Below are positions 257 through 26,134 of a stretch of 36,681 bases of DNA, in pieces. A program made the position numbers and the translations under genes. The DNA is from Propionibacteriaceae bacterium. Lineage in GTDB: Bacteria; Actinomycetota; Actinomycetes; Propionibacteriales; Propionibacteriaceae. Numbering within the stretch: the first letter of the stretch is position 1; every line of letters begins with the position of its first letter. The stretch is from positions 1-36,681 of the forward strand of contig JAUNKV010000029.1 of NCBI GenBank assembly GCA_030532575.1, given 5' to 3'. The notes below the pieces were generated by a model that did not search any database, was not told where the DNA came from, and saw nothing but the letters and a program-made list of their open reading frames with translations.

Positions 257-2737
257 TCACAGTGCTTCGGCGATTTGGCGGGCAACGGTGATGGTCTTCG
301 TTTTTCCCTTGGAGGCCGCCAGGGCTGCGACGTTCGGGAGTGTGATGCTGACCCCTGCGGCCTGGACCTCCGGCAGCAGGCGCAGCACCGTCTCGAGGAG
401 ACCGGCCGTGGTGGCCGGGACCTTGTCCGCTCCCGCGGCCTCCTCGGCCAGCACCGCGAGCAGCGGCCAGACCAGGGCCAGGCCGCCACCGTCGGCGATG
501 ACCGCCAGTACCTCAGCCACCTTCGCCGGGGCGCGGCGGAAATGCCTGGCGGTGTGGCCCAGCTGGTCCGGCAGCTCAAACAGCACACTGTGCCAGGCTG
601 TGACAAGGTCTTCTGCGGTCAAGCGACCCTCGTCCCAGGCGCGCAACCACAGCTCGGCGATGGCGTCGCGATGCTCCGGCGCCGCCCCGCCAGCCCAGGC
701 CAGCCCCAGCACGGTGAGGGCCTCGCTGAACGGATTCGCCACATCCCCCAACAGCTGATGGCACCATGCGGCCTGCTTCACGCCGTGGCGCTCCAGCGGG
801 TGCACCGCCGCCAGAGCCTGGTGGGCCTGATGCTGCGGCAGCAGCTGGGCGACGGCAGGAACCTCCTCGTCCACCGGAATCGTGAACGGCTCCCCGAAGC
901 AGGGGTGGATGTGGGCCTTGGCGGTGAGCAGGCCCCGCCCGCCAGGAGACGAGTGCAGATCGGCCAGTCTCAGCATCGCGAGGGTGACCGGTGCGTCGCC
1001 GTCGAACACCATGCGGTAGTGCCATTGGGCCGTGATGTCGTCCTTCAGCGCAGGCGCGAAGCTGACCGAGATCGGCTCGGGGTCGGTGTCCCGCCAGTGC
1101 GCCAGCACCTCATCCAGCGAGGCGGCGACGCCGTGGATCGGATGGGCGAAGGGGCTCAGGTCAGCAGGGGCAGCGGCCCGGTCCAGCCGGGCCAGGGCGA
1201 CGGCGACATCGGCGGCCAGGAGCGGCTGCCCGACCTCCTGGTAGCGCCCGACCCGGGCCGCGAACTCCTCCCACGAGACCCGAAACCCCTGATGGCTGGG
1301 CGTGGACAGCAGACACGGCAGCTCACCCAGCCAGCCCAGCACCTCCACGATGCGCCTGGCCGCCAGCATCGGCAACGGGCTCCAGCCCTCCACAGCCGGG
1401 GCGACGGTGGCTTCCTTGAGCTCCGCCCCATCCGCCCAGGCCAGCAGCAGGGCCCGGATCGCGAACGGATCGTACTCAGCCGTGAGGTGCCGCCGCACCA
1501 GCTCCCGCACCCGATCCGTGCCGTGGTCGCGGGCGTGGGCGACGAGCACCGCCAAGCTCCACTCCACGAGCTGGGGGAAGAAACCGCTGGTGTTGATGTC
1601 ATCGCCCAGCAGGTCCGCGACCTGTGCCGCATCCAGCCGCAGGGCCTCGTCGCTGAACGCAGGCATCGGCTCAGGGCCGGTCAGGGCGGGCTCCCGCCAC
1701 AACCCCGTCGGCTCCTGCTCCTCCTGTGAACTCGAGACCTCACCCCAGCTCTGGAGCAGCCCGGCGGCGAGGTCGCGGGTGGTGGTGTCGCCGTCAGTGG
1801 TGAGCACCGCGACCAGCTCCCGCAGCTCCTCGTCCGGCTCCGCCAACCGGGGGAGGGCCTTCAGCAGCGAGCGCCGGATGCCCTTCTCCTTGCGCACCAG
1901 AGCGACGACGGCCAGGGCCGTCAGCTCCTCGTCGCTGAGCTCCGGGCGGAGCAGCTGCTCGACGATCACCCCCGCCACCTTTGCCGGTGCCAGCGGCAGC
2001 GCATCACGCAGTGCGGTCCGATGCTGCCACAGCTCGCCGCGCAGCCCGAGCAGGTCGATCCAGTTCAGCGCGTACTGCTGCGCAGCGGGCCGGTCGCCCC
2101 GGGTGAACACCTGAACCAAGGCCGGTAGCACGCTGTGCGGGACGGGTTCGGCGGCCCTGAGCCGCGCGACCGGTCCGGCCAGCTTGTCGAAGTGTTCGGG
2201 TGAAATCCACCCGGCGAAGGAGTCCGTGATGGCCGCGGCCTTCGCCAGCCGATCCCAGAATCGCCGCCCGGGCAGCACCAGCTCCGGACCGGGAACGGGA
2301 AACCGGCTCGTCCAGTAGCGCGGATCATCCGGCAACGGCAGGCCGTGGGCATCAATGAGGGCATCCAGCAGCGGCCGGAACTGATCAGCCTGCTTTCTCT
2401 CGCACGCCGCCGCCACCAGCGCCGATGCCCACTCGGGGCCGCGCCGGGCCAAGTGCTGCGCCACCTGGTCCATGATCTGGCACTCGTCGAGCTCCGGGAT
2501 GATGTACCCATCCGCCAAGGCCAGCGCCGCCCGCTTGACGGGGACCTCGAAGAACGCGGCGACGATCACCGCGAGCTCCGGCATGTCGCGCTCGCCCGCC
2601 ACCCGGCGAAGCCGGGGCATCGACTTCCTCGCCTCCACATCCCAGGCCGCGCGCTCGTCGTCGCCCAGGGCCTCCAGGGTGGCGATGAGTGCTCGAGCAT
2701 CAGCGCTGGTCAGCAGCGCCTCCTCCAGGTTCACCAT
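257..2737 (-). CDS. Array paralogue copy 9: large helix-rich protein of the SWIM-associated (DUF6493-like) family
   Basis: 826 residues, the last gene of the minus-strand array. The N-terminal module runs to the GLWREP linker near residue 344. The C-terminal module carries LLSTPSHQGFRVSWEEF near residue 475 and AWDEGRLTAEDLVTAWHS near 700. It also carries GLALVWPLL near 750 and a tail at about 798-826 (LPNVAALAASKGKTKTI) that is more diverged than in copies 4-6. No signal peptide, membrane helix or catalytic motif is evident; the sequence is rich in Leu, Ala and Glu and looks alpha-helical, perhaps HEAT-like. The ATG overlaps the end of copy 8 by 7 nt (ATGGTGA) and is preceded by GGAG, so translational coupling is likely. 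Assignment to DUF6493 is from memory and was not searched. The biochemical role is unknown. Confidence 0.85.
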   Translation of the reverse strand: MVNLEEALLTSADARALIATLEALGDDERAAWDVEARKSMPRLRRVAGERDMPELAVIVAAFFEVPVKRAALALADGYIIPELDECQIMDQVAQHLARRGPEWASALVAAACERKQADQFRPLLDALIDAHGLPLPDDPRYWTSRFPVPGPELVLPGRRFWDRLAKAAAITDSFAGWISPEHFDKLAGPVARLRAAEPVPHSVLPALVQVFTRGDRPAAQQYALNWIDLLGLRGELWQHRTALRDALPLAPAKVAGVIVEQLLRPELSDEELTALAVVALVRKEKGIRRSLLKALPRLAEPDEELRELVAVLTTDGDTTTRDLAAGLLQSWGEVSSSQEEQEPTGLWREPALTGPEPMPAFSDEALRLDAAQVADLLGDDINTSGFFPQLVEWSLAVLVAHARDHGTDRVRELVRRHLTAEYDPFAIRALLLAWADGAELKEATVAPAVEGWSPLPMLAARRIVEVLGWLGELPCLLSTPSHQGFRVSWEEFAARVGRYQEVGQPLLAADVAVALARLDRAAAPADLSPFAHPIHGVAASLDEVLAHWRDTDPEPISVSFAPALKDDITAQWHYRMVFDGDAPVTLAMLRLADLHSSPGGRGLLTAKAHIHPCFGEPFTIPVDEEVPAVAQLLPQHQAHQALAAVHPLERHGVKQAAWCHQLLGDVANPFSEALTVLGLAWAGGAAPEHRDAIAELWLRAWDEGRLTAEDLVTAWHSVLFELPDQLGHTARHFRRAPAKVAEVLAVIADGGGLALVWPLLAVLAEEAAGADKVPATTAGLLETVLRLLPEVQAAGVSITLPNVAALAASKGKTKTITVARQIAEAL

Positions 2738-5190: not shown

Positions 5191-5466
5191 GGTCTGTCCT
5201 CCTGGGTCCGGGCGGGTGGAGCGTCATCGGTCAAGCGACGGCGAAGCCCACGGCACAGTCTGCCGGAAGTTCATGCCCGATGGTATACGGCTACGCTTCG
5301 GTTTGCTTTGGGGACAGGTTTCTGCGAAAGTGGAGTCAACCCGGCACGGCTCCGGGCTCCGCAGCGAATCCAGCCCGATACGCAAGTATCCCCCCACTCT
5401 CACTGCGGGCCCAAAGGTCAACCGCCGTGCCGGGCCCCCATCTTTTTCACCACCCCCCTCTCCCCG
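5191..5466. other. Gene-free upstream region of copy 8
   Basis: Between copy 8 and the DUF559-type gene there are about 400 bp without a convincing gene. This part is less GC-rich in places and should hold the promoter for copies 8 and 9. A weak minus-strand -10-like TATACC lies at 5282-5287, about 90 bp from the start codon, but no good -35 is visible. I found no remnant of the missing 3' end of copy 7 here. Confidence 0.35.
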
Positions 5467-5540
5467 AAGCGCTGCAAATGCGCGGCGTGTTCTGGTTGGG
5501 AGCGCTCTCAGTAGCAACGCGCCGCACATTTGCAGCGGTT
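5467..5540. repeat. Palindromic element 1 with LacI/CebR-operator-like core
   Basis: An inverted repeat with 22-bp arms at 5470-5491 and 5516-5537, built on CGCTGCAAATG(C/T)GCGGCG. The centre at 5497-5510 is TGGGAGCGCTCTCA, one mismatch from a perfect TGGGAGCGCTCCCA palindrome. It lies 50 bp upstream of the DUF559-type start codon. Copies 2 and 3 are at 6422-6491 and 18896-18967. Confidence 0.85.
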
Positions 5541-5589
5541 TGACTGTGGAAAAGAGTTCTCGAGGCGCGAAGCTGCCCATGGTGTGAGT

Positions 5590-6417
5590 ATGAACTCCCC
5601 TCTTGCAGACCTCCCCCTCATCGTGCGCCGCGAACACCCAACGCTCCGGGGGCACATCGACCGCCTGGTCCGCACCGGAAGGCTGGTTCCAGTGCTCTCC
5701 GGGGTGCTCCGGTGGCGCGAGGTTGAACCGACGTTCGATCTCCTCGCGGCGGCGACGTGCGCCTGGAGCCCTCGCGTCGTCCTTCTGGGAAGCGCAGCGG
5801 CAGCCCTGACATGGTGGTCCGGACTTGTGCCGACACACATCGACGCAGCCATTCGGGCTCCTCGCAGAGCCCCGGTATGGCTGCGATGTACAGAGCTTGC
5901 CCTGCCCCCTGAGCTGGTGTGGGAACGTGCAGGGCTCCGGGTGGCCCGGCCTGAGCTCTCAATCCTGGGGATGCTGAAACCAGGGGATGCCTCTGTCATC
6001 TGTGAGGCGTATCGCCGACAGGTGACGACGTGGGCCCGCCTCGCGGAGGCGCTCAGCCTGCTCCCGAACCGGGTCGGGAACCAGTTTCGTAGACACCTGG
6101 TCGAGGTCTCCCGTGACAACCCGTGGTCTCCCCTGGAGCTGGAGGCGCACCGACACCTCCGGGGCGCAGGCATCACGGGTTGGCAGGCCAACCACAAGGT
6201 GGCGCTGTCAGGGCACATCCATTTCCTCGACATTGCTTTCCCGGAGCGGCTGCTCGCCGTTGAGCTGGATGGTTGGGAGGCCCACTCCAGTCGGGACAGC
6301 TTCATCCTGGACCGGGCCCGCCAGAACCGTCTTGCCACGGCAGGTTGGACGATCCTGCGCTACACGTCGGAGACGCTGGAGCACATGGTTCCCGAGGTCA
6401 GGAAGCTCCTTCGATGA
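5590..6417 (+). CDS. DUF559-type (Vsr/PD-(D/E)xK-like) protein with AbiEi-like N-terminal region
   Basis: 275 residues from the ATG at 5590. The frame stays open upstream into palindrome 1, so that part is unlikely to be coding. Residues 1-45 look like the winged-helix region common in AbiEi-type and DUF559 proteins (HIDRLVRTGRLVPVLSGVLR). Residues 180-275 match the DUF559/Vsr-like nuclease fold: SPLE at 181-184, HFLDIAF at 211-217 and AVELDGWEAH at 223-232. They continue with DRARQNRLATAGWTILRYT at 241-259. Candidate acidic active-site residues are E184, D214 and E225/D227. It is the only plus-strand gene inside the minus-strand array, is bracketed by palindromes 1 and 2, and converges on copy 7. 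DNA strand cleavage or nicking is a family-based inference. No partner toxin or methylase is adjacent. Confidence 0.82.
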   Translation: MNSPLADLPLIVRREHPTLRGHIDRLVRTGRLVPVLSGVLRWREVEPTFDLLAAATCAWSPRVVLLGSAAAALTWWSGLVPTHIDAAIRAPRRAPVWLRCTELALPPELVWERAGLRVARPELSILGMLKPGDASVICEAYRRQVTTWARLAEALSLLPNRVGNQFRRHLVEVSRDNPWSPLELEAHRHLRGAGITGWQANHKVALSGHIHFLDIAFPERLLAVELDGWEAHSSRDSFILDRARQNRLATAGWTILRYTSETLEHMVPEVRKLLR

Positions 6418-6421
6418 CCAG

Positions 6422-6491: not shown

Positions 6492-6496
6492 TTCAG

Positions 6497-8680
6497 TCAT
6501 GGGACCTCGGGACGGAAGCGCTCCAGCGCGTCGCGGGCTGCCTTGGCAGCAGGCCCCAGCTCCTCCAGCAGCGGCCAGGCCAGGGCCAGGCCACCGGCCT
6601 CCGCGATCAGCACCAGCACCCCGACGAGTGGGATCGGCTTCAGCGGCCACTCTGACTTCCACTCACTCCGCCAAGCGGCAACGAGAGTGCTCGGGTGCAA
6701 CCGACCCTCGTCCCACGCATTCAGCAGCAGCGCCGCGAATTCCTCCCGGTCCTTCTTCCGCTGCTTCGTCACCGTCGCCAGGATCGCGAAGGCCGCCTCC
6801 GGGGTGATCCGCGCCGTGGTCAGCAGCCGCGCCGCCAAGGAGTCCGGGCCGTGATGGTACAAGGTGCCCTCGCGACCCAGGACCTGCAGCAGGTGCGCTG
6901 CCGGGCGGGTCGGATGCTCCGGCAGCAGCGACATCACCCCCAGCTCCTCCGAACACTCCCCGTCCAGCGGGACGGAGGGTTCCACCCATGGCCCGTCGAT
7001 CCCAAGCATCCCCGCGACGACAGGGACGTCGCCATCGCAGCGGAGCCGCCGGTAGGGCAGGTTCTGCCAGCGGCTCGCATCCGGTTCCTCGGGGATGAGC
7101 CACAGCCTCCCGGGCTCAGGGTCGGTGTCCCGCCAGCAGGCGACGACCTCAGCCAGCGACGACTCCACGCCGTCGATCGGCTGATCCAGCTCCGTCACAT
7201 CCACCGGGGCTGCACTGCGATCCATCCGGGACAGCGCGACGAGCACATCGGTGGGGGAAAGGGGAAGGGTCGCCTCCCGGAACGCGGTGGCCCGCTCGGC
7301 GAAGCTGACCCAATCGAGCCGGTTGCCCGTCAGCGTCGGGATGGACAACGGCACGGGCACCAGCCCGAGCAGCGGCAACGTCTCCCGCATCCGACGACCG
7401 ATCAGGCTGGTCAGCGGGCGTTCCCCCAGCGTGCCCGGCTCCTCACCGGTCGCGACCTGCAGCAGCACCCGGGTCAGCTGTGTGCGTGCGTCCAGGTTCT
7501 CCGCCGCGAACTCGAACAGCGCCTCACGCCCCCGGGCGTGCGCGGCGTGGAAGAGCTGGGCAAGCCACACCTCCTGGTGATCCCAGGCCTTGGGCTGTTC
7601 CCAGGGGAGCTCATCCATCAGCTCGCCGAGGTCGGCCTCGAGGTCCGCGTGGCGCGCATCCGGCTCGGCCACCCCAGCCGGTTCCCGCCACAGCCCGAGC
7701 CGCTCCGGTGCCGCTGCTGCCTCACCCCATCCGGTAAGGAGCTTTGCCGCCGCAGGGTGTTCCGGCGCCAGCGCAGCGACGGTGTCGCGGAGGTCAGCAG
7801 AAGGAGCCTTCAGCCTCCCCAAGGACTTCACCACCTGCCCGAGGACCCCCTTCGCGGCCCGGGGCATAACGACGACGGCGAGCGCGTCGAGGTCCGCCTC
7901 GGGCAGCTCGGGGGTGAGGAGCTCAGCCAGCGCCAGCTTCACGAAGGAGGCATCCGCTGCGGGGAGGGCGTCGATGACGCGGCGGCGATGCTCCCAGAAC
8001 AGGGCGGTCAGGCCGAGCCCTGACACCCAGTGGGCTGCCACCCGCTGGGTGTTCGTGCGATCACCCCGCTCGAAGACCTGGAGCAGGGCGGACAGCAGGG
8101 CCGCGTCGTCGGTGGGTTCACTCGCCCGCAGCTTCTCGACGGCGCGGGCGATGCGTTGCTCGTCGACCCTCCGGTTGGGGGCGAACAGTTCGGGGGCCAG
8201 GCAGGCCGTGAGGAATCGCTGCTGCCACCGCACCCCGGGGCGGGGCAGTGGGGAGCGGGCGTACCAGCCGCGCCAGTAGTCGGGGGCGTCGGGCAGGGGC
8301 AGGTCGAACTCGGTGATGAGGTCGTCGACGAGTCGCGCCAGGTCGGCCCGCAGGCGCGGGACGGCGCAGGCGGAGCGGATGAAGGCGGCCACCCAGTCGG
8401 CGCCCTTCGCGCGGAGCCCCTGGGCGACGACCGGGGCGTGACCGATCTGCAGCAGCTCCGGGTTGAGGGCCTTCGCAGCCTGGGCGGGGGTGATCGGCAG
8501 ATGGGCCAGCAGCACCAGGAAGCTCTGCGCCTGACCGCGCCCGACCAGCCGGGTTCGCAACTTCGAGGTGGTGGCTGCGAACTCCTTCGCGGCCTCCTCG
8601 CGCCCGGCGTCGTCGAGGGCGGCGATCCGGGCCGCGACCTCCTCAGGCTGCCGGGTGTGGGTGAACAGTGCCTCGATCAT
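6497..8680 (-). CDS. Array paralogue copy 7, lacking the conserved C-terminal tail
   Basis: 727 residues from ATG 8680, with AAGGA upstream. The N-terminal module includes WRGWYARSPLPRPGVRWQQ near residue 140, and the GLWREP linker is near 330. The usual LLSTPS motif is altered to PLSIPTLTGNRLDWVSF near 445. The chain reads GLALAWPLL near 695 and then stops at FRPEVP. Sister copies continue after LLPEVP into about 30 more residues (VELPNITALAxRKGS). The stop codon lies 6 bp from the edge of palindrome 2, so the loss of the tail coincides with that element. It may still be expressed. Whether it works without the tail is unknown. Confidence 0.82.
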   Translation of the reverse strand: MIEALFTHTRQPEEVAARIAALDDAGREEAAKEFAATTSKLRTRLVGRGQAQSFLVLLAHLPITPAQAAKALNPELLQIGHAPVVAQGLRAKGADWVAAFIRSACAVPRLRADLARLVDDLITEFDLPLPDAPDYWRGWYARSPLPRPGVRWQQRFLTACLAPELFAPNRRVDEQRIARAVEKLRASEPTDDAALLSALLQVFERGDRTNTQRVAAHWVSGLGLTALFWEHRRRVIDALPAADASFVKLALAELLTPELPEADLDALAVVVMPRAAKGVLGQVVKSLGRLKAPSADLRDTVAALAPEHPAAAKLLTGWGEAAAAPERLGLWREPAGVAEPDARHADLEADLGELMDELPWEQPKAWDHQEVWLAQLFHAAHARGREALFEFAAENLDARTQLTRVLLQVATGEEPGTLGERPLTSLIGRRMRETLPLLGLVPVPLSIPTLTGNRLDWVSFAERATAFREATLPLSPTDVLVALSRMDRSAAPVDVTELDQPIDGVESSLAEVVACWRDTDPEPGRLWLIPEEPDASRWQNLPYRRLRCDGDVPVVAGMLGIDGPWVEPSVPLDGECSEELGVMSLLPEHPTRPAAHLLQVLGREGTLYHHGPDSLAARLLTTARITPEAAFAILATVTKQRKKDREEFAALLLNAWDEGRLHPSTLVAAWRSEWKSEWPLKPIPLVGVLVLIAEAGGLALAWPLLEELGPAAKAARDALERFRPEVP

Positions 8681-12028: not shown

Positions 12029-13423
12029 TCAGAGGGCTTCTTTGATGAGGCGGGCGGTTTTGATGGCCTTCGTTGATCCCTTGCGGTCGGCCAGGGCCGT
12101 GATGTTCGGCAGCTCGACGGTGTGGGGGACCTCCGGGAGCAGGGCGAGAATCGTCTCGAACACAGCTGCGGCTCCAACCGGGACCTTTTCAGCAGCAGCG
12201 AAGCCTTCTGCGATCTCGACCAGCAGGGGCCAGGCCAGGGCGGGGGCCTCGGACTCGATGAAGAAGGTCAGTAGCGGGAGGACCTTGGCGGGTTTGCGGT
12301 CCAGGGTTTTCCGACCCGATTCGAGGTTCAGCTGTTCCCACACAGAAGAACGCCAGCCGGTTGCGAGGTCGGATGCGTTCAACCGGCCCTCACGCCAGGC
12401 GTCGAGGAGTACCAAGGCCAGGCGCTTCACCTGCAACGGTTCGAGTTGTGAACAGGTGGCAAGGGCGACGACTACCAGCAGCTCGCTGAAGTGTTGAGCG
12501 ACAACCGCGCAGGAGATGAGGCTGTCCAGGGCGCCGTCGGTGTCCGACTGGCGCAGCTGGTGCAGCACCACCCCAGCCGGGCGGGCCGGGTGCTGTGGCA
12601 ACAGTCGCATGATGATGTCGTGAGGTCGGGTATCCACCGTGTTGCCCTCAGCTGGCGACCAGAGCACGGGCAAGTCCGCCACGTCGCGCATTGGGTGGGA
12701 TGCCTCGTAGTGGTGGGGATGGTTCCAAGCGGTGTCCAGGCCGAGTACTTCATGGGTTGTGGGAACATCACCGACGACCTGGAGCACGACTTCACCTCGG
12801 GCATTCCTGGAGGTCAGGGACAGGCCAGCGGGCTCGACCGAGGTCGAGGCCCAGAGCTCGATGACCTGCGCCAGCCGCAGATCGCAGCCTCGGATGGGAG
12901 CATCGATTCCGACGTGGTCGTCGGACCTGCGGAGCCGGGCGAGTGCGATGGCGACATCCGTTGGCTCCAACAGCACGCTGTCGCGGTTGTACTGCTCGAC
13001 ACGATCCCGCAGGTCCCGCGCGGTCACCTCGTAGCGACTGTTCGAGGGGGTGGAGAGCAGGCAGGGCAGCTCTCCCAACCGCTGCAGTACGTCGTGAAAA
13101 CGCTGGGCGGCCAGGAAGACCAGCGGTCCCTGCGGCGAATGGGCGGACCGAGGGGGTGCGCCCGGCACGATGGTGCCATCACCGAGCCGAGCCAACAGAC
13201 GCCCCGAGTAGCCGAAGAGAAAGGCGAGGCTGCTGAGGGTGCTGCCCTGGCACGCGGCGACGACGGGCTCAGGGCCGCGGGCATGGGCAGTGGCAACGAG
13301 CTGGGCGAGGGCGCGCTCCGTCAGATCGGCATACTCCAGCCAGTTCGCAGAGACCTCAGCGGTCAGCTCAGCCAGAGCGAGGTCGTCGAGCACCGTGGGG
13401 GTGAACTCGGAGGGATCGGTCAT
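12029..13423 (-). CDS. Array paralogue copy 5: stand-alone C-terminal module
   Basis: 464 residues, about half the length of its sisters. It begins MTDPSEFTPTVLDDLALAEL, matching the sisters immediately after their GLWxEP linker (copy 2 reads PLVLDDPALTALL there). It continues with LTERALAQLVATAHARG, LLSTPSNSRYEVTARDL near residue 124, AWREGRLNASDLATGWRS, ALAWPLLVEIAEGFA and the tail ELPNITALADRKGSTKAI. The N-terminal module of about 375 residues is absent, and I see no remnant of it in the repeat-filled DNA upstream. The ATG is preceded by a modest GAAAGA purine stretch. It may be a truncated relic or a functional single-module protein; the intact frame favours recent truncation or retention of function. 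The last 114 bp are identical to copy 4. Confidence 0.78.
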   Translation of the reverse strand: MTDPSEFTPTVLDDLALAELTAEVSANWLEYADLTERALAQLVATAHARGPEPVVAACQGSTLSSLAFLFGYSGRLLARLGDGTIVPGAPPRSAHSPQGPLVFLAAQRFHDVLQRLGELPCLLSTPSNSRYEVTARDLRDRVEQYNRDSVLLEPTDVAIALARLRRSDDHVGIDAPIRGCDLRLAQVIELWASTSVEPAGLSLTSRNARGEVVLQVVGDVPTTHEVLGLDTAWNHPHHYEASHPMRDVADLPVLWSPAEGNTVDTRPHDIIMRLLPQHPARPAGVVLHQLRQSDTDGALDSLISCAVVAQHFSELLVVVALATCSQLEPLQVKRLALVLLDAWREGRLNASDLATGWRSSVWEQLNLESGRKTLDRKPAKVLPLLTFFIESEAPALAWPLLVEIAEGFAAAEKVPVGAAAVFETILALLPEVPHTVELPNITALADRKGSTKAIKTARLIKEAL

Positions 13424-16313: not shown

Positions 16314-18758
16314 TCACAGCCCGTGCAGGTACAGCGTATCCCTGATGGCCCGGGCCAAGGTGATGCTCTTCAGCGTCTCGTCCCGAGCCGCCAGGGCCAG
16401 CAGGTTTGGCAGCTCGGGGCGCTCCCCGGCCGCCAGGGCCTCCGGCACCAGCTTGAGCACGGCCTCGAACACGGTGGGGGCCACCGGAGAAATCTTCTCC
16501 GCCCCCGCCAGCTCCTCCGCGATCTCCACGAGCAGCGGCCAGCCCAACGCCAGCCCGCCCAGATCGGTCAAGGCGGTCAGCAGCGTCAACACCCTGCCCT
16601 CGATGCGCTCCACCCGCAGATTCGACTCCGCAGGCTGCAGCACCTCCCACAGCTCGGAATTCCACCCGGCGATGAGATCACCCGGCCTCAGGCGATCCTC
16701 CGCCCAGGCCTCCAGCAGGGCGGCCGCGACGGCGGGGCGTCCCTTCGGCTGGATGATCGCGACGGTGGCCAGGGCCGCCACCACCAGCGGCTCGTCGAAA
16801 CGCTGCGCCACCCTCATGCAGGGCAGCAGGTACTCCAGCGCGGTCGCAGGGCCGGAACGGGTGATGCTGCCCAGAATCTCCGCGCTGGGCCGGGCCATCA
16901 GGCGGGGCAGCAGATGGCCGGTCAGCGGCCCCGGGGCCTGCGGGATGCCGAGCAGCTCATGCCACGGCGGCACCTCACCCTCCACCCGGATCGGGTCCAG
17001 GTTCCAGGTCCACCACTGCTCCACGCTCAGCCGCGCGGGTGCGGTCTCGTCGGCACGCCACGCCGCCAGCACCTCAGCCAGGCCCGCAACCACACCGTTG
17101 ATGGGGGCATCCAGCCCGCTGAGATCATCGGTGCGCTCACAGCGCCCGAGTGCGACGGCGAGGTCGGCGGGATCGAGCGGTACCCCGGCCTCGACGTGGC
17201 GTGCGATGCGGGCGCGCAGGTCGTCTGGTGTGACCACCCAGCGGTCGGTGCTGGGGGTGGACAGCACCACGGGGAGTTCTCCCAGCCGTAGCAGCACCCC
17301 GTGGCGGCGCCTCTCACCGAGCGGCAGCGGGGCGTCGTCGTCGGTCAGACGCGCCTGCGCCGCGCCCAGGCTGCCATCGCCCACCTGGGCCACCAGCGTG
17401 GCCAGGGGGGACAGCGCCTTCTCCGGGTCCAGCTGGCTGCAGGCCCGGAGCACGACGTCCGGCCCGTGAGCGTGGGCGGTGGCGACCAGTGAGGCCAACA
17501 GCTGCTCCTCCAGCAGCCAGTTCTCCATGACGCCGTTCTGCCAGCTGTAGCGGGCCTCCTGCACCAGGGTGTCCAGCTGCGGCGGGTCGAGGATCAGGGG
17601 GTCGAGGCCCGGGAAGGGGGCGGGGGCGGAGTGTTCCGCTTCCCGCCACAGCCCCTGCGGTTTGGGCGGCGGGGGCAGCGTGACCCCCCAACCGAGCAGC
17701 AGGTCCTGGGCGAAGCGGGCAATGGTGGTGTCGGTGCTCTGCGACAGCGAGACGATGAGTTCGGCCAGCTCGGGGGTGGGCAGCTCGAGGGCGCTCAGCC
17801 GGGTCAGGACCTCGTGCTTGAGGTGCTTCTCCCTGCGGGGCAGCACCACCGTCGTGAGCTGCAGCAGCTCGTCCTCGGTCAGGTCCAGCTCGATCAGGCG
17901 GCTGGTGAAGGCCGCGACGAGGCGGGCATCGACGGTGGGCAGGACCGCCAGGACGCGGGCGCGTTCGGTGGCCAGATCGAGGCCAAGGCCCTCGATCCAG
18001 GCCAGGACCTCGCGCTGGATGCCGGGGCGTTCCCCGCGCTCGAGCACCTGCAGCAGGCCGTCGAGGAGGGCGTCGTCATCGGTGGGTTCGGCGCGGCGGA
18101 GCGTGGCTGCGGCTTTGCGGACGTCCTCGATGTGCTCCTGGTCACTGGTGGGGTGGTTGAAGGCCCCGGGGACCGTGCAGGCGATCAGGAAGTGCTCCTG
18201 CCAGCGAACACCTGGTTTCGGGATGCGTCGGGTGAAGCCGGTGAGGTAGGCGGGGTCGTCGGGGATGGGCAGGTCGAGCGCGGTGAGGAGACGGGCGATC
18301 AGCGGGGATGCGGTCTCGATCATGCCGGGGCGGTCACGGAGCCCGGCGATGAAGGTCTGCACCCAGGGGATGCCGTGGGCGGTCATGAAGCGGGCGACGT
18401 GGGGGAGTCCGCCGTCCAGCTCGAGGTAGTGGATGGTGCTGCGCTGGAACAGGGAGAGCACCTGCTCCGGGGTGGTGTCCAGGGCGGCGGCGAGGATCAC
18501 CAGCCGGGTGGCGACCCGCTGCTTCTTCTCGTGGGCGGCGATGTCCTTGGTGCTGAAGGTCTCCACCATGTCGAAGCCCTGGCGGACCATGCCGGGCTTC
18601 AGCTTGCCGGGGGCCAGTTCCTGCTGCCAGGACAGGAGCGAACGCTGCGCGGCGGCCGACCATCGGGCGCGTTCCGTGGCGTTCATGGCGTCCAGCTGGG
18701 CGGCGAGGCTCGCGGCGCTGGTGGAACGGGTGATGAGTTTGGGGATGGTGATGGTCAT
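16314..18758 (-). CDS. Array paralogue copy 3: large helix-rich protein of the SWIM-associated (DUF6493-like) family
   Basis: 814 residues from ATG 18758 (MTITIPKLITRSTSAASL), with a strong GGAGGAGGAG site just upstream. The open frame extends 49 codons further back into palindrome 3 but aligns with nothing. Landmarks are PGVRWQEHFLIACTVPG, VLAWIEGLGLDLATERARVL near 245 and the GLWREA linker near 368. Next come LLSTPSTDRWVVTPDDLRAR near 499, AWAEDRLRPGDLIAGWNS and GLALGWPLLVEIAEELAGAEK. The tail is diverged (PELPNLLALAARDETLKSI) and extended to LYLHGL, unlike copies 2 and 4. It is closely followed by copy 4. Palindrome 3 lies about 140 bp upstream of the start and could influence its expression. 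Confidence 0.87.
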   Translation of the reverse strand: MTITIPKLITRSTSAASLAAQLDAMNATERARWSAAAQRSLLSWQQELAPGKLKPGMVRQGFDMVETFSTKDIAAHEKKQRVATRLVILAAALDTTPEQVLSLFQRSTIHYLELDGGLPHVARFMTAHGIPWVQTFIAGLRDRPGMIETASPLIARLLTALDLPIPDDPAYLTGFTRRIPKPGVRWQEHFLIACTVPGAFNHPTSDQEHIEDVRKAAATLRRAEPTDDDALLDGLLQVLERGERPGIQREVLAWIEGLGLDLATERARVLAVLPTVDARLVAAFTSRLIELDLTEDELLQLTTVVLPRREKHLKHEVLTRLSALELPTPELAELIVSLSQSTDTTIARFAQDLLLGWGVTLPPPPKPQGLWREAEHSAPAPFPGLDPLILDPPQLDTLVQEARYSWQNGVMENWLLEEQLLASLVATAHAHGPDVVLRACSQLDPEKALSPLATLVAQVGDGSLGAAQARLTDDDAPLPLGERRRHGVLLRLGELPVVLSTPSTDRWVVTPDDLRARIARHVEAGVPLDPADLAVALGRCERTDDLSGLDAPINGVVAGLAEVLAAWRADETAPARLSVEQWWTWNLDPIRVEGEVPPWHELLGIPQAPGPLTGHLLPRLMARPSAEILGSITRSGPATALEYLLPCMRVAQRFDEPLVVAALATVAIIQPKGRPAVAAALLEAWAEDRLRPGDLIAGWNSELWEVLQPAESNLRVERIEGRVLTLLTALTDLGGLALGWPLLVEIAEELAGAEKISPVAPTVFEAVLKLVPEALAAGERPELPNLLALAARDETLKSITLARAIRDTLYLHGL

Positions 18759-18968: not shown

Positions 18969-21542
18969 TCAGCGGGAAACCACTTTCTCAGCGATGGTCC
19001 GGGCCAGGGTGATGGCCTTGCTTGATCCCTTGCGGGCGGCCAGGGCCGTGATGTTCGGCAGCTCGACGGGGTGCGGCACCTCGGGTAGCAGGGCGAGGAT
19101 CGTCTCGAACACTGTTCCGGCAGTTGCGGGGACCTTGTCCGCGGCGGCGAGCTCTTCTGCGATCTCGGTCAGCAGCGGCCAGACCAGGGCCAGACCTCCG
19201 GCCTCGGCGAGGGATTTCAGGACCGGTGCGAGCTTGGCCGGGGCGCGGTCGATGGGCTTCCCGGCCTCGTCGTCGGCGAGGACATCCCAGGCGGGGGAGC
19301 GCCACCCGGCGACGAGGTCGTCGCCGACGAGGCGCCCCTCGTCCCAGGCAGCCAGCAACACCTCGGCCACCTTGTCCCGGTCCTTCGCCGCGACGGTTGT
19401 CGCCGTGGCCAGCGCTGCGACCGCGAGCAGCTCCGGGAACCGTCGGGCCGTCGCTGCGAGGTCGAGGAACCGGTCCAGTGCAGCGGAGGTCTGGCTGTTG
19501 GTGAGCAGCTGCAGCACCGTCGCCGCGGGTCGGGAGGGCAGACCCGGCAGCAGCGTGAACACCGACGGGAACTCGGTTCGGGAGCCGAACCCGCCATCAG
19601 CCACGGCTGCGCCCCACTGGCTGGAGGGGCGCCACTGGTCCGGCGGGAACCAGCCGGGGCGGTAGGGCTGGTTCCACGCGGTGTCCAGGCCCAGCAGCTC
19701 GTGCCAGAACGGGTCCTCGCCGTCGACGACGAGGTTGCAGCCCCACTGCGGGTTCTCGGCCTCAGACTGGAGCCAGGCGGGTCCGGGCTCTGCCGAGCGC
19801 CACGTGTCGATGACCTCCGCCAACGTCAGATTGCAGCCGCGGATGGGGGCATCGAACCCAGCGAGATCAACGATCTCGGCAGGCTCACAGCGGCCCAGCG
19901 CGACGGCGACATCTGTCGGCTCCAGCGGCACCCCGGCCTCGATGTAGCGGGCGGTGCGGGAGCGCAGGTCATCGACGCTGACCCGGAACCGGGAGTCACT
20001 GGGGGTGGAGAGCAGGCAGGGCAGCTGCCCGAGCCCGTGGCAGACAGCGCGGGCGCGTTCAGCCGCGAGGTACAGCAGCGGCCCGCCGTCGGGTTCGATG
20101 TCCGGCGGCGGGGTGCCCGGGGTGAGGGTACCGTCGCCCAACCAGCCGAGCAGCTGCTGCAGGTAAGGCGGCAGGGAGTCGTCCATGTCGAACCCCTCAC
20201 AGGCCGCGTCCACGGGCTCGTCGTCCTGCGAGTCCGGGGCGGCGACGACCTCGGGGCCGCGGGCGTGGGTGGTGGCGACGAGTTGGGCGAGGGCTCGTTC
20301 GGTGAGCTCGGTGCGTTCGTCCCAGTCCTCGTCCACCTCCTCCAGCAGCGCGGTGAGGGCGGGGTCGTCGAGGACCAGGGGCTCGAGACCGGGGAAGGGC
20401 TCAGGATGGGACCGGGAGGGTTCCTGCCACAGTCCTTGGGTCTGGGCGTCCTGGGCCGGAGCGCTGCCCCAGGACTCGCACAGTGTGCTGGCGAGTTTGG
20501 CCGTGGTGGTGTCGGTGTCGCGGCTGAGTTCAGTGACCAGCTCGGTCAGCTCTGCCGATGGGGTGGTGAGTTGGTCGAGGCGTTTCAGGACGTCTCGTTT
20601 GAGGCCCTTCTCCTTGCGGGGCAGGACGGCCAGGGCCAGCTGGGTCAGGGCGTCGTCGTCGAGGGGCATTGCCAGCAGGGCCGCGCTGAAGGCGGCGACG
20701 ACGCGGGAGTCGGCCAGGTCCAGGGCGCGCAGCAGCCGTGCGGGCTGGGTGCTGAGGTCAAGGTCCAGGCCCTCGATCCAGGCCAGGGCCTCGCGTTGCG
20801 GGCCGGGGCGTTCGCCGCGTTCGATCACGCTCAGCAGGCCGTCCAGGAGGGCGGCGTCGTCGGTGGGCTCGGTCAGGCGGAGAGCTGTGGCCGCCTCACG
20901 GATCCTGGCGATGTGCTTGTCACGCTCGGGGCTCTGCCAGAAGACGTCGTGGGTGGCGCAGGCGGCCAGGAAGTGGTCCTGCCAGCGGGTCCCCGGGGCG
21001 GGCAACGTCCCAAACCATACGCCGAGATGGGCGGCGACGTGCGGGACGGGCAGGTCCAGCTGTATGACCAGGCGTGAGATGAGTGATGATGCGGCTGCTG
21101 CGGTGGTGGGTCGTGCCAGGAGCCCGGTCATGGTCTCCTCCGCCCACTCGGTGCCCCGCTCGATCATGAGGTCTGTGAGGTGTTCGATGGCCTCCTCGTG
21201 CTCCAGCTTGGTGAGGCCCTCGGGGTGGCAGAGCTTCACGAACTGGGCTGGCGTGGCCCCCAGAGCGACGGCGACGAGCAGCAGCCGACCGGTTGTGCGG
21301 TGGTGGCGGTCGAATGCATCGACGGCATGGTTGAGGATTTTCCTGCGGGTCGGGTCGCTGGTCTTCGTGATGTCGTCGCGGTCGATCATCCACCACTGCA
21401 TCACCTGGCGCCACACCGGCAGGGACTTCTTCATCGTGGCGGTCCACTCGGCGCGTTCGTCGTTGCTGAGGGCCTTCAGCTGGGCGACCAGGGCCGCGGC
21501 GTCGTCAGCGTGGGCGACGGCTCGGGGGATGTTGATGGTCAT
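18969..21542 (-). CDS. Array paralogue copy 2: longest member of the family
   Basis: 857 residues from ATG 21542 (MTINIPRAVAHADDAAAL), with a GAAAGAA purine stretch upstream. Landmarks are PGTRWQDHFLAACATHD, ALAWIEGLDLDLSTQPARLL near 250 and VLPRKEKGLKRDVLKRLDQL near 305. The GLWQEP linker is near 375 and LLSTPSDSRFRVSVDDLRSR near 510. It then has AWDEGRLVGDDLVAGWRS, GLALVWPLLTEIAEELAAADK and the tail ELPNITALAARKGSSKAI. Extra length sits in the C-terminal module: an acidic Asp/Ser-rich loop after the ATTHARG helix and an aromatic stretch (YRPGWFPPDQWRPSSQWG) near 630. The stop lies at the edge of palindrome 3, but here the tail is intact and merely extended by VVSR. Confidence 0.87.
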   Translation of the reverse strand: MTINIPRAVAHADDAAALVAQLKALSNDERAEWTATMKKSLPVWRQVMQWWMIDRDDITKTSDPTRRKILNHAVDAFDRHHRTTGRLLLVAVALGATPAQFVKLCHPEGLTKLEHEEAIEHLTDLMIERGTEWAEETMTGLLARPTTAAAASSLISRLVIQLDLPVPHVAAHLGVWFGTLPAPGTRWQDHFLAACATHDVFWQSPERDKHIARIREAATALRLTEPTDDAALLDGLLSVIERGERPGPQREALAWIEGLDLDLSTQPARLLRALDLADSRVVAAFSAALLAMPLDDDALTQLALAVLPRKEKGLKRDVLKRLDQLTTPSAELTELVTELSRDTDTTTAKLASTLCESWGSAPAQDAQTQGLWQEPSRSHPEPFPGLEPLVLDDPALTALLEEVDEDWDERTELTERALAQLVATTHARGPEVVAAPDSQDDEPVDAACEGFDMDDSLPPYLQQLLGWLGDGTLTPGTPPPDIEPDGGPLLYLAAERARAVCHGLGQLPCLLSTPSDSRFRVSVDDLRSRTARYIEAGVPLEPTDVAVALGRCEPAEIVDLAGFDAPIRGCNLTLAEVIDTWRSAEPGPAWLQSEAENPQWGCNLVVDGEDPFWHELLGLDTAWNQPYRPGWFPPDQWRPSSQWGAAVADGGFGSRTEFPSVFTLLPGLPSRPAATVLQLLTNSQTSAALDRFLDLAATARRFPELLAVAALATATTVAAKDRDKVAEVLLAAWDEGRLVGDDLVAGWRSPAWDVLADDEAGKPIDRAPAKLAPVLKSLAEAGGLALVWPLLTEIAEELAAADKVPATAGTVFETILALLPEVPHPVELPNITALAARKGSSKAITLARTIAEKVVSR

Positions 21543-21557
21543 GATGGTTCTTTCAGT

Positions 21558-22185: not shown

Positions 22186-22192
22186 GGGGGAC

Positions 22193-24574
22193 TCACAGCT
22201 GTTCTCCGATGGTCCGGGCCAAGGTGATGGCCTTGCTTGATCCCTTGCGGGCGGCCAAGCTCGTGATGTTCGGCAGTTCGGTCTTGTGAGGCACCTCGGG
22301 TAGCAGGCCGAGGATTGTCTCGAACACTGACGAGGCACTGGCTGGGACCTTGTCCGCGGCGGCGAGCTCTTCTGCGACCTCCACCAGCAGCGGCCAGGCC
22401 AGGGCGAGCGCGCCATCGTCGGCCAGCAGGCGGAGCATGGCGGCGACCTTCGACGGCGACAACTGGAACTCGCGACCCTCCGGGCTGGTCCAGGCGTCGA
22501 CCAACTCCCGCGGCTGCAGCCTGCCCTCCTCCCACGCCGTGCACAGCACCGCTGCGACGGCCTCGCGCTGCTGCGGGGTGCTCTCGGAGGCGACGACCAG
22601 GCAGGCCAGCGACAGCACCGGGCCGAACGGGGCCGCCACCTGACCGACCACCGTCAGGTCCTCCAGCGCCGTCCCCGCCCCCAGCCGATGGGTCAGCTTG
22701 ATGATCCGCAGCGCCGAGCGGTGGGGCAGGGCGGGCAGCCAGCGCAGCGCCTCCATCCGCTCCGAGTAGTAGCCCTCATCCGGCGAATTCCACAGCCCCA
22801 CCAGGCCGAGCGCCACCACGAGGGCCGGTTCGTCGTCGCTCAGCCTGCATCGCATGGACGCCCCGCCGTCGCGATGCCCCGACCCGTTTGGCGGCAGCAC
22901 CTTCAGCCGTGGCCGGTGGGGGCGATCCAGCCAGATGCTGATCACCTCCGCCAGGGTGCGTTCCAGCCCCCGGATCGGCTGCTCCAGCGCGCTCAGATCC
23001 GACGGCGCACCGCCCGGATCGACGCGACTCAGTGCCGCCAGCACATCGGTGGGCTCCAGCGCGACGCCGAGGTCCCGGTACCGGGAGGCCCGCTGCAGCA
23101 GCGCCCGCCACGTCAGCTGATTGTTGCGGTGGGTCGGTGTGGACAGCAGGCAGGGCAGCTCCCCCAGCCGACCCACGACCGCCAGCGCATGGCCCAGCAC
23201 CAGATGGGTCTGCTGCCGGGTCTGCGGTGTCGGCAGGTCCTCGCTGCTCGCCAGGTGGGTCAGGGCCTCGGCGAGGACCGACTGGTCCAGGTACTCGCTG
23301 GCCAGCGGGCGGAGGTCGAACTGCTCCAGCACCGCCACCACGTCGGACAGCCCCCGCGAATGGGCGGTCGCCACCAGATCGGCCAGCTGCGACTCGAACT
23401 CGCCACCGGTGATCCGGGAGCGGTCGGTGACGACGGTGAACAGCTCAGCCAGCCCCGGATCGTCGAGGACGCGGGGCCGCTCGGGGAGGGGCTCGACCTC
23501 GCCCGAGGGGTCCCGCCACAGGCCCGTGACCGGTTCGGCCCCCTCCGGTGCGATCCCCCACGCGCCCAGCTGGGTGATCGCTGCGGCGGCCAGGCCGGGG
23601 TCTGGCTCCTGGGCGAGGGCCTGCAGCGCAGCCACCAGCTCCGGGCTGGGGGAGGTGATGCGGCCCAGCTGCTTCAGCACCTGCTTCCTCGGGGATTTCT
23701 CCTTCCGGGAGAGCACCTCGACGGCGAGGGCCTCGAGGTGTTCGTCGTCGAGGTCCGGCAACAACTGGGCGCAGGCGAAGGCGACGACCGTCGAGTGGGC
23801 GTTCGGGAGCGCGGCCAGGAGGCGGTCTGGCTTCTGGCGGAGTTGGTCGGTGAGGTCGAGGCCCTCCAGCCATACCGTCGCATTGGTCTGGGCGGCGGGC
23901 CGGTCACCGCGTTCGATGATCCCGAGCAGCGCGGCGGTGAGGGCGTCGTCGTCGAGGGGTTCGACCTGACGCAGCCGGGGCGCCCATTGCTGGATACGGG
24001 TCACGGCGACGGTCCGGGCCCCCATCGGGGTGCCCAACGCATCGGGCAGCGAGCAGGCGGCCAGGAGATGCTCCTGCCAGCGCCGCCCGGCGGTGGGGGC
24101 GCCCAGCCGCTGCACCCAGTCGCTGAGGTAGTCGACCTCCAGGGGCAGGGGCAGCTGGTGGGCCAGGATGATCGGCTCGAGGATCAGCGACACCAACGCG
24201 GGTGCCGTGCGGCCCATGTACTCGGAGATCAGCTGCCGCCCCCACTGCGCCCCCCGGTTGATCATGGCCTCGGTCAGTGGGTCGAGGTCGTTCCCGTCGT
24301 CGATGAAACCCCGGAACCACGCATCGACGGTCTCGGCGAACTGCTCCGGGGTCGCCCCCAGCTCGACCATCAGGACAGCCAGCTCCGCCTTGAACTCGCT
24401 GCTGCGCAACCGGCGGACGACATCGCCCTGATGCTCGGCGAAGACGGCCTCCAGCCGGGCCCGCTCCTCACCCGGGAGGCTGCGGAGCTGTCGCAACAGC
24501 GCGACGGGGCCGCCTGCATCCATGACGAGACGACGCAGGGCCTTCGCGTCGGGATGCTCAGGAGTCTTGGCCAT
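22193..24574 (-). CDS. Array paralogue copy 1: family member next to the SWIM gene
   Basis: 793 residues from ATG 24574, with GGAAGGA upstream. It has LPLPLEVDYLSDWVQRLGAP in the N-terminal module, the GLWRDP linker near 353 and LLSTPTHRNNQLTWRALLQR near 478. It continues with AWEEGRLQPRELVDAWTS, ALALAWPLLVEVAEELAAADK and the tail ELPNITSLAARKGSSKAI. It is the first array member after the SWIM gene in transcription order, with a 204-bp repeat-containing gap between them. In other actinobacteria, as I recall, a SWIM protein is typically accompanied by a single large protein of this kind. That would make this the positional counterpart of the single-copy form, although N-terminal divergence means this is only an inference. 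Confidence 0.86.
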   Translation of the reverse strand: MAKTPEHPDAKALRRLVMDAGGPVALLRQLRSLPGEERARLEAVFAEHQGDVVRRLRSSEFKAELAVLMVELGATPEQFAETVDAWFRGFIDDGNDLDPLTEAMINRGAQWGRQLISEYMGRTAPALVSLILEPIILAHQLPLPLEVDYLSDWVQRLGAPTAGRRWQEHLLAACSLPDALGTPMGARTVAVTRIQQWAPRLRQVEPLDDDALTAALLGIIERGDRPAAQTNATVWLEGLDLTDQLRQKPDRLLAALPNAHSTVVAFACAQLLPDLDDEHLEALAVEVLSRKEKSPRKQVLKQLGRITSPSPELVAALQALAQEPDPGLAAAAITQLGAWGIAPEGAEPVTGLWRDPSGEVEPLPERPRVLDDPGLAELFTVVTDRSRITGGEFESQLADLVATAHSRGLSDVVAVLEQFDLRPLASEYLDQSVLAEALTHLASSEDLPTPQTRQQTHLVLGHALAVVGRLGELPCLLSTPTHRNNQLTWRALLQRASRYRDLGVALEPTDVLAALSRVDPGGAPSDLSALEQPIRGLERTLAEVISIWLDRPHRPRLKVLPPNGSGHRDGGASMRCRLSDDEPALVVALGLVGLWNSPDEGYYSERMEALRWLPALPHRSALRIIKLTHRLGAGTALEDLTVVGQVAAPFGPVLSLACLVVASESTPQQREAVAAVLCTAWEEGRLQPRELVDAWTSPEGREFQLSPSKVAAMLRLLADDGALALAWPLLVEVAEELAAADKVPASASSVFETILGLLPEVPHKTELPNITSLAARKGSSKAITLARTIGEQL

Positions 24575-24778: not shown

Positions 24779-26134
24779 TCACCGAACCTCGACCGGAGGC
24801 TGATGCCCCGCCCCTGCCTCCGGCATCGACTCGCGTCGCAGCAGCTCCACCGCCAGCACGTGCTTGCACACGCCCCGCGAGCCTTGATGGTCCCGCCACC
24901 ACGGGCAGGTGCAGCTGTTGGGTTCGGTGCGCACGATGTACTCGCCGTGGTCGCCGCGGACCCGGAACACGCCGTCGTGGCCCTCGTAGGGAGTGACGGC
25001 CCCCTCCGCGATGAGCCGCCGGGCCTGCTTCAGCCGCGGATTGGCCTTCTCCACCCGTGCACTGTCCGAGGGCAGCTCCCGGTGGAAGTAGGCCTCCTCG
25101 AACAGGTCGTAGCCGACGCGGCCGTCGTTGGCCAGCACCGCCAGCCCCTCGGCGACCCGCTCCTTGCTGAGCGCGGTGTCCCGGGTCAGGGTCTCCACGT
25201 CGATGCGTGGCTCGAAGGCCAGGCAGGCAGCGATCAGGTTGGCGTCATCGACGGCGGTCGCGGCACCGAGCTTCAACAGCAGCGCACCCTCGCCGGAGAA
25301 CCCACGGTAGAACTCCGGGGTCAGGGTGAAGGTGAGGCGACCGTGCGGCAGGGCGAACTCCCACACCGACGGCGACAGCTGCTCACCCGGCTTGGCATAG
25401 ACCCGAAGCCCCATGATCTGCGGGCTCAACCGCCTGGCCGCCCGCAGCCGGTTCAGCCCCTCCGCGTAGACGGTACCCTTGCCGGGCCGCAGCGCAGGCT
25501 TGACCCCCAACCTGCTGATCGCCCAGTGCCCCTTGCGCCCCGACCCGGACGGGATGGCCGCCAGGAACTGGCGGGTCTGCACCGCCGGGGCCTCACCGAC
25601 CAGCTCCAGGCCCCGGCTCAGCTCCTGCGACGACCCGAGCGCCTTCAACCAGCGGTCCGGCAACGCCACCTTCCGCTCCACATGGGTGCCCTCCAGCGTC
25701 GAGACCCGCATCTCCTCCTGGCCCACCGCCAGATGCATCAGCTCCGAGGATGTGATCTGGGTCAATGCCTCACGCAGCGGTGCGTTGATGTCCACATTCG
25801 TGGTGCCGTGCTGGATGTCGCCGCCGTCGAAGGCCGAGGCCAGCAGGTCCAGCCTCACCCCTACCGTGTTGCACGCCGAGAACGACTCGAAACGCATCCG
25901 GTCCCCGTTGGCCGTGCAGATCGGGTCCCTGGCATCGACCGGGAGTGGCTGGAAGTAGCGGGTCTGGGCCACATCGGCCAGCACCAGCAGACCGCGTGCC
26001 AGCACCGTCGGCTGCGCCGCGAAGCCGGAGAAGAACTCCGGGCGAGGCACCAACCCCTCGGGGGTCAGCGCCGGGGCCAGCTCCAGGCTGAGACCGGCGT
26101 CGTCGAGCAACGATGCAGAAGCGAAAGTCCTCAT
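24779..26134 (-). CDS. SWIM zinc-finger protein
   Basis: 451 residues from ATG 26134; an in-frame TTG two codons upstream is possible. The C-terminal SWIM finger is clear: C408-x-C410-x12-C423-x-H425 (CTCPWWRDHQGSRGVCKH). It is preceded by a beta-rich segment (EGHDGVFRVRGDHGEYIVRT). Residues near 310-345 (VETLTRDTALSKERVAEGLA) look like a winged helix. The N-terminal part contains RFESFSACNTVGVRLDLLA and HGTTNVDIN, conserved as I recall in actinobacterial SWIM proteins. SWIM fingers bind zinc and usually mediate DNA or protein contacts. SWIM proteins often accompany MoxR/vWA genes (for example around E. coli yehQ), but neither is in this window. It heads the nine-copy array and is divergent from lgt. 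Confidence 0.88.
   Translation of the reverse strand: MRTFASASLLDDAGLSLELAPALTPEGLVPRPEFFSGFAAQPTVLARGLLVLADVAQTRYFQPLPVDARDPICTANGDRMRFESFSACNTVGVRLDLLASAFDGGDIQHGTTNVDINAPLREALTQITSSELMHLAVGQEEMRVSTLEGTHVERKVALPDRWLKALGSSQELSRGLELVGEAPAVQTRQFLAAIPSGSGRKGHWAISRLGVKPALRPGKGTVYAEGLNRLRAARRLSPQIMGLRVYAKPGEQLSPSVWEFALPHGRLTFTLTPEFYRGFSGEGALLLKLGAATAVDDANLIAACLAFEPRIDVETLTRDTALSKERVAEGLAVLANDGRVGYDLFEEAYFHRELPSDSARVEKANPRLKQARRLIAEGAVTPYEGHDGVFRVRGDHGEYIVRTEPNSCTCPWWRDHQGSRGVCKHVLAVELLRRESMPEAGAGHQPPVEVR

What the first reader, a model, noticed from the sequence alone, without database searches (positions are those of the whole stretch)
257..26134. SWIM zinc-finger gene heading a nine-copy tandem array of one giant protein family
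Seen: nine consecutive minus-strand genes share ordered motifs: (L)PLPxxPxYW, PGxRWQ, a GLW(R/Q)(E/D)P linker, LLSTPS, DEGRL..DLxxAW, GLALxWPLL and ELPNIxALA. They follow a SWIM-finger gene. Known: SWIM proteins sit with large helical proteins and often with MoxR/vWA ATPases. To my knowledge the DUF6493-like partner is usually single or low copy. Inferred: about 24 kb kept as an expanded array implies selection for dosage or diversity, for example interchangeable scaffolds recruited by one SWIM protein. Recognition, conflict or stress roles are all open.
Basis: partly seen in the sequence, partly recalled or inferred. Interest (0 to 1): 0.78.

Follow-up and report, generated by a model that had tools for sequence, protein, structure and literature searches.

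The report
SWIM gene heading diversified solenoid array
A bacterium of the oral genus Arachnia carries one zinc-finger (SWIM) gene followed by about ten very different but individually conserved copies of one large helical-repeat protein, which looks like a repertoire of different binders around one shared partner rather than extra dosage of a single protein.

Summary
The array is real: on the minus strand a SWIM gene (24779-26134) is followed by nine paralogues (257-24574), eight near full length and one C-terminal half. A tenth very probably lies on the next contig and seven more are scattered in the genome. The host is an Arachnia-type Propionibacteriaceae. The proteins are divergent relatives of the known SWIM neighbour, DUF6493-DUF7824-DUF7825; one copy models as a helical solenoid. 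Copies are only about 32-51% identical, yet 9 of 9 have a colinear orthologue (66-83%) in a second species, the half copy included. dN/dS is 0.28-0.48, against 0.11-0.18 for the SWIM gene and two neighbours. This contradicts dosage and supports a maintained, fast-evolving repertoire. An Actinomycetaceae MAG has a 74%-identical SWIM gene and five copies, four from a separate expansion. Function is inferred: the SWIM protein matches PADLOC's SWIM_XIII, and three relatives' loci adjoin or contain restriction-type genes (genes hand-picked), while others do not. Best guess: one WH-SWIM hub serving many target-binding solenoids in a conflict system. MoxR/vWA partners were not seen.

The parts
24779..26134 (-). 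SWIM gene, 451 aa; zinc ligands C408, C410, C423, H425; winged-helix-like stretch about 282-350
   Evidence: PF04434 22.6 bits over cut-off; ligands invariant in 4 of 4 aligned; PADLOC SWIM_XIII E 1.3e-40; model poor, pLDDT 39. Start could be 26110 by the gene caller
22193..24574 (-). copy 1 (793 aa)
   Evidence: 1002 bits; HEAT_2 over cut-off, DUF7824 24.5 bits under cut-off; model pLDDT 88.6
18969..21542 (-). copy 2 (857 aa)
   Evidence: 1136 bits; orthologues in G034 and G023, support 96
16314..18758 (-). copy 3 (814 aa)
   Evidence: 1016 bits; orthologue in G034, support 100
13845..16268 (-). copy 4 (807 aa)
   Evidence: 1060 bits; DUF7824 over cut-off; orthologue in G034, support 100
12029..13423 (-). 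copy 5, C-terminal half only (464 aa)
   Evidence: profile positions 355-804; kept at 455 aa, 78% identity, in G034 and G023
9133..11487 (-). copy 6 (about 784 aa from the ATG; open frame to 11568)
   Evidence: 1061 bits; DUF7824 over cut-off; orthologues support 100
6497..8680 (-). copy 7 (727 aa), C-terminal end missing
   Evidence: 876 bits, ends at profile position 773 of 804; 728 and 732 aa orthologues in G034 and G023
5530..6417 (+). antisense DUF559/MTES_1575-type gene with AbiEi-like N part, flanked by 72-nt inverted repeats (5466-5537, 6423-6494)
   Evidence: orthologue at the same place in G034, 75% over 158 aa
2731..5190 (-). copy 8 (819 aa)
   Evidence: 1000 bits; DUF7824 over cut-off; 83% orthologue in G034
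257..2737 (-). copy 9 (826 aa), overlaps copy 8 by 7 nt
   Evidence: 1032 bits; DUF7824 over cut-off; orthologues support 100; gaps

Best explanation
This is an expanded form of the SWIM-DUF6493 gene couple. One winged-helix-SWIM protein is shared by a repertoire of about ten clustered, and up to seventeen genome-wide, HEAT/ARM-like solenoid proteins. Shown: homology, order, divergence between copies, copy-by-copy conservation in other species, a second separate expansion, and a helical solenoid model for one copy. Inferred: the solenoids bind different targets through their fast-evolving surface, a part conserved between paralogues docks the slow-evolving SWIM protein, and binding is passed on through the WH-SWIM protein, which probably contacts DNA. 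The likeliest use is intracellular conflict, i.e. sensing of phage or mobile elements.
For: Copies about 32-51% identical to each other but 9 of 9 have a colinear orthologue in G034 at 66-83% (tree support 96-100) and 7 of 9 in G023, including the half-length and the C-terminally short copy. dN/dS 0.28-0.48 for the nine copies against 0.13 SWIM, 0.18 and 0.11 for two flanking metabolic genes. SWIM is 94% identical where copies are 66-83%. Second SWIM + five-copy array in an Actinomycetaceae MAG, SWIM 73.6% identical, four copies one separate clade. N-half-only and C-half-only copies are themselves kept. Conflict: SWIM_XIII match of the window SWIM and of 5 of 5 other SWIM proteins tested; type III restriction-methylation genes beside the G001 locus and inside the G002 array, DISARM/Dpd/DruE-like genes near the G062 locus; relatives of the SWIM protein in 8 plasmid records; patchy presence (SWIM in 18 of 39 genus genomes; 8 of 396 phylum genomes, own included).
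Against: No direct functional data. The array content is stable across three species, more than expected of a fast-turnover defence repertoire. Window flanks are metabolic (Lgt, two alpha-amylase-fold genes, CCA-type transferase, M23 peptidase), as are the scanned flanks at G019, G028 and G029. The ten genes were chosen by me, mostly for size, from three loci, with no background control. None of the seven DUF6493-type proteins tested (window copies 1 and 9 and five relatives... plus the G001 protein) gave a convincing PADLOC match. Physical contact between SWIM and any copy is untested. No match in phage records.
Confidence: 0.43

Rival explanations
1. A physiological scaffold set: the solenoids are subfunctionalised scaffolds or regulators of a normal cell process, each with its own client, with SWIM as a common regulator.
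For: Colinear one-to-one retention in G034 (9 of 9) and purifying selection; SWIM locus close to the same metabolic genes in G000, G034, G002, G004 and G005; metabolic flanks at several relatives.
Against: Patchy presence in the genus, array absent in most genus genomes searched (11 of 36 with a match), a closely related SWIM plus array in another family, restriction-type neighbours in three relatives.
Confidence: 0.33
2. Recombination-driven drift: interspersed repeats caused tandem duplication and the copies are kept by chance.
For: Spacers full of a repeat found 193 times genome-wide; partial copies; 3' ends of copies 4 and 5 with spacer 84% identical over 297 nt.
Against: Nine open copies, each with an orthologue and dN/dS 0.28-0.48.
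Confidence: 0.08
3. Dosage: many copies to make more of one protein.
For: Same-strand tandem copies, some overlapping.
Against: Copies about 32-51% identical and each nearer to its orthologue than to any neighbour.
Confidence: 0.02
4. An effector module of a retron-like system (the SWIM protein matches the PADLOC retron XIII-named model).
For: SWIM_XIII E 1.3e-40, over residues 226-432. That type XIII retrons pair an ARM protein with a WH-SWIM protein is recalled, not from a call.
Against: The only RVT_1 match in the genome is C54:32511, not in this contig; no PADLOC match for the copies tested.
Confidence: 0.02

Closest known systems
SWIM zinc finger family protein + DUF6493 family protein couple (PF04434 with PF20103, PF25148, PF25149), e.g. 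on plasmids of Asticcacaulis, Diaphorobacter and Streptomyces
   Same: SWIM gene followed on the same strand by a large DUF6493/DUF7824/DUF7825-type protein; profile match of the array family to these, prob 99.6, E 1e-24
   Different: There one or two partner genes; here about ten clustered plus seven scattered, diverged, with free-standing halves. DUF6493 itself is not detected by HMMER in the nine
Single-copy SWIM + 1030-1090-aa protein loci of other species of the genus (G001, G019, G028, G029, G062)
   Same: Homologous over about 670 columns (prob 100, E 2e-44); SWIM 44-50% identical
   Different: One longer partner (about 280 more C-terminal residues) instead of many
PADLOC SWIM_XIII (by name and recall the WH-SWIM protein of retron type XIII)
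   Same: SWIM protein matches the model
   Different: No reverse transcriptase nearby; helical partners match no PADLOC model
MoxR-vWA ternary conflict systems (PMC7159879, passages seen)
   Same: Only the general idea of a multi-part conflict system
   Different: No MoxR or vWA gene found at the window; the word SWIM does not occur in that paper's main text

Membership tests
SWIM-DUF6493 couple | SWIM domain with intact CxC...CxH ligands | tested here: met
   PF04434 over cut-off; ligands invariant in 4 of 4
SWIM-DUF6493 couple | Partner directly downstream, homologous to DUF6493-DUF7824-DUF7825 proteins | tested here: met
   DUF7824 over cut-off in 5 of 9; profile-profile 99.6 over most of the length; weaker, 91, against the C31/C53-type set
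SWIM-DUF6493 couple | PF20103 (DUF6493) itself detectable in the partner | tested here: not met
   0 of 9 at E 0.1; the genome's 3 PF20103 matches lie on C31 and C53
SWIM-DUF6493 couple | One or two partners per SWIM gene (usual state seen here, not a formal criterion) | tested here: not met
   nine in the window, about ten in the array
HEAT/ARM-type solenoid proteins | Stacked-helix solenoid fold | tested here: met
Retron type XIII | Reverse transcriptase gene adjacent | tested here: not met
   one RVT_1 match in the genome, C54:32511-33122, other contig
Retron type XIII | WH-SWIM protein matching SWIM_XIII | tested here: met
Retron type XIII | Partner matching a PADLOC retron partner model | tested here: not met
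   copies 1 and 9: 0 families at E 0.1; the other seven copies were not given
MoxR-vWA systems | MoxR AAA+ and vWA genes at the locus | tested here: not met
   no such Pfam hit among the window genes scanned; part of the flanks of relatives scanned

The most novel reading that the evidence does not exclude
A bacterial receptor repertoire: one conserved WH-SWIM signalling or effector protein shared by 10-17 rapidly diverging HEAT/ARM receptors, each tuned to a different phage or mobile-element cue, expanded separately in at least two actinobacterial families and passed between them together with the SWIM hub - a prokaryotic counterpart of immune-receptor repertoires around a common adaptor.
Probability: 0.25. 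Interest if true: 0.85.

Novelty: new variant of a known kind. Interest (0 to 1): 0.57.

Why it matters
The SWIM-DUF6493 couple occurs in distant bacteria, yet the ten literature searches made here gave no paper on its function (in one search, none of the 20 papers listed of 32 held DUF6493, DUF7824 or DUF7825). One SWIM gene facing ten divergent, individually conserved partners, with natural N-half and C-half copies, is a ready-made way to find which part binds SWIM and which part meets targets. A second, separate expansion in another family points to selection on diversity. If the conflict reading holds, it would be a new receptor repertoire in bacteria.

Tried and rejected
Dosage: rejected by divergence and one-to-one orthology. 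Drift: mostly rejected by dN/dS (NG86 only). Retron membership: no reverse transcriptase on the contig. MoxR/vWA: not seen. Phage carriage: no match of copy 1 in phage records; of the SWIM alignment in viral contigs 70 pattern matches, none confirmed. Solved structures by sequence: none for SWIM at E 1; for the array profile one weak match, syntaxin-12, E 2e-5 over 85 residues, not followed up and probably composition. The SWIM model was too poor to fold-search (pLDDT 39). PDB neighbours of the solenoid are generic. Promoter scan 0 found, 0.4 expected, uninformative. Conserved sites could not be placed on the model, whose coordinates are not readable here.

Limits. One search scored at most 16 and at most 2 candidates per genome, so their counts are lower bounds; one search gave G028 no match although its SWIM neighbour matches the profile. 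The genome-contig scan used one peptide pattern, so other species may hold arrays. PF20103 in 5 of 296 phylum genomes, own included, undercounts, since that model misses this family. My gene caller was trained on window genes and missed genes in other base compositions (L036, and the SWIM genes of G030 and G018). For the tree, 3 of 80 profile hits under 300 aa were dropped; it is a quick tree with long-branch warnings, so deep branches are not used. For the tree, 34 rows were chosen by hand. SWIM loci where no partner was recognised beside SWIM: G015 and Streptomyces cadmiisoli.

Literature: listings gave no paper on this gene couple. Passages only were seen of PMC7159879, PMC4858521, PMC12548924 and PMC11953036 (which lists retron type XIII among PADLOC results). 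The retron classification paper 10.1093/nar/gkaa1149 is not held; its content is recalled.
Full report
WHERE IT IS. The window is a whole 36,681-base contig (C56) of a 3.19-Mb, 75-contig genome. Named relatives of its proteins are Arachnia propionica OH2822_COT-296 and OH887_COT-365 and Pseudopropionibacterium massiliense. The organism is therefore an Arachnia-type Propionibacteriaceae.

THE OBSERVATION. The SWIM gene and nine minus-strand paralogues are real. All nine match one profile (606-1136 bits). They are 34-37% identical to copy 9 and 32-40% to copy 1; the best paralogue of each is 36-51% identical. Copy 5 (12029-13423) is only the C-terminal half, and copy 7 (6497-8680) lacks the C-terminal end. 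A DUF559/AbiEi-like gene lies antisense inside the array. The gene at the right end of contig C14 is the orthologue of the copy that follows copy 9 in G034 (74%), so a tenth copy is very probable. In all, 17 gene calls of this genome match the profile and are at least 300 aa long. Their lengths sum to about 13,000 aa, some 39 kb or 1.2% of the genome (my sum). A separate SWIM + two DUF6493 locus lies on C31 and a DUF6493-DUF7825 gene on C53.

HISTORY. 9 of 9 window copies have an orthologue in G034 (support 96-100), in the same order. 7 of 9 have one in G023; the other two would fall where its assembly breaks between contigs C132 and C124. G034 has an extra copy, a short C-terminal fragment after SWIM, and three unrelated genes (hydrolase, EamA, LysR types) inside its array; G023 has a full copy where G034 has the fragment. 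Orthologues are 66-83% identical, against 94% for SWIM and 93% and 89% for the two alpha-amylase-fold genes here named TreY and TreZ (names by me). dN/dS is 0.28-0.48 for the nine, 0.13 for SWIM, 0.18 and 0.11 for those genes. Each copy is thus kept by selection but changes faster than the hub. G002, G004 and G005 have 5, 4 and 4 members, headed by a 75-76% identical SWIM gene. Of 36 genus genomes 11, own included, match the array profile; of 24 same-order genomes outside the genus none does. The SWIM protein is found in 18 of 39 genus genomes.

SECOND EXPANSION. An Actinomycetaceae MAG (L036) has a SWIM gene 73.6% identical over 432 aa, followed by five head-to-tail copies, one (584 aa) lacking the middle. 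Its first copy pairs with window copy 1 (SH-aLRT 99). Its other four form a clade (96) beside window copies 2-5 and a G034 copy (99 for the joint set, quick tree). The simplest reading is that a SWIM + two-copy locus was shared by transfer between the two families and the second copy then expanded separately. Flanks differ: three DUF6138 genes and a beta-lactamase-fold gene there, Lgt and alpha-amylase-fold genes here. Actinomyces dentalis has two copies; no SWIM relative lies in the 22 kb held around one of them.

SURROUNDINGS. Window flanks are Lgt, two alpha-amylase-fold genes, a CCA-type nucleotidyltransferase and an M23 peptidase. In relatives the picture is mixed. PADLOC labels a type III restriction and methylation pair beside the G001 locus, the same kind of genes plus an SNF2-type helicase between copies of the G002 array, and DISARM-, Dpd- and DruE-like genes within about 18 kb of the G062 SWIM gene. 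These ten genes were picked by me from three loci. Scanned flanks at G019, G028 and G029 are metabolic. A Fic gene lies upstream of SWIM in G034, and a fic-type toxin gene near SWIM in one Streptomyces plasmid. Eight plasmid records hold a SWIM relative.

MECHANISM. Shown: homology, a solenoid model, divergence, selection and recurrence. Inferred: stretches most alike between paralogues (58% at 201-225, 46-52% at 501-550, 39-56% at 676-793 of copy 1) hold shared contacts such as SWIM docking, and the rest holds differing targets. The scaffold rival explains the stability of the set better. The conflict reading explains patchiness, the second expansion, plasmid carriage and restriction-type neighbours better. 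I put the conflict version at 0.43 and the scaffold version at 0.33.

REPEATS. The spacers hold a mosaic repeat (families D7-D10) whose 17-base core occurs 193 times in the genome with up to one mismatch, 0 in the reversed control. Of the 90 exact sites listed, 10 lie in this contig, which is 1.2% of the genome. It may have helped duplication.

VERDICT. A real, expanded and diversified variant of a known but uncharacterised gene couple. Dosage is contradicted, diversity is supported, and function is open with a lean towards conflict.

Noticed in passing
window 5466-6494: A DUF559/MTES_1575-type gene with AbiEi-like N part sits antisense in the array, flanked by 72-nt inverted repeats that recur at 18894-18968; an orthologue lies at the same place in G034.
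   Followed up: partly
window spacers, e.g. 8679-9044, 11565-12015, 21484-22189, 27395-28058: Mosaic interspersed repeat with core CCGGCTCGACCAGCGGA, 193 sites genome-wide with up to one mismatch; 10 of 90 exact sites in this contig.
   Followed up: partly
L036:1260-5766: Three tandem DUF6138 genes lie divergently upstream of the MAG's SWIM gene.
   Followed up: no
G062 C1:3073927-3074465 (L056 about 9927-10465): Broken pieces of a second SWIM gene, 57-75% identical to the window's, lie at the far end of a DISARM/Dpd/DruE-like gene cluster.
   Followed up: no
G002 C1, between array copies (L046:16811 to L047:7066): A type III restriction-methylation cluster with an SNF2-type helicase is inserted between copies of the P. 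massiliense array; the restriction gene is called in two pieces here (544 and 581 aa), the second not scanned.
   Followed up: partly
L046:10463-10882 and L050:11078-11512: A pyrimidine-dimer-glycosylase-type gene (PF03013; L046 copy tested) lies antisense between array copies in G002; a gene of similar size sits at the same place in G005.
   Followed up: no
L024:3432-6746: Two DUF4303 genes precede the C31 SWIM + two DUF6493 locus.
   Followed up: no
C14, C52 and C58 copies (L017, L019, L022): Several scattered copies carry an extra N-terminal module that itself matches profile positions of about 5-166, i.e. a partial internal duplication.
   Followed up: partly
G000 C54:32511-33122: The genome's only RVT_1 match (658-aa open frame), about 20 kb from a scattered copy on the same contig; type not determined.
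   Followed up: no
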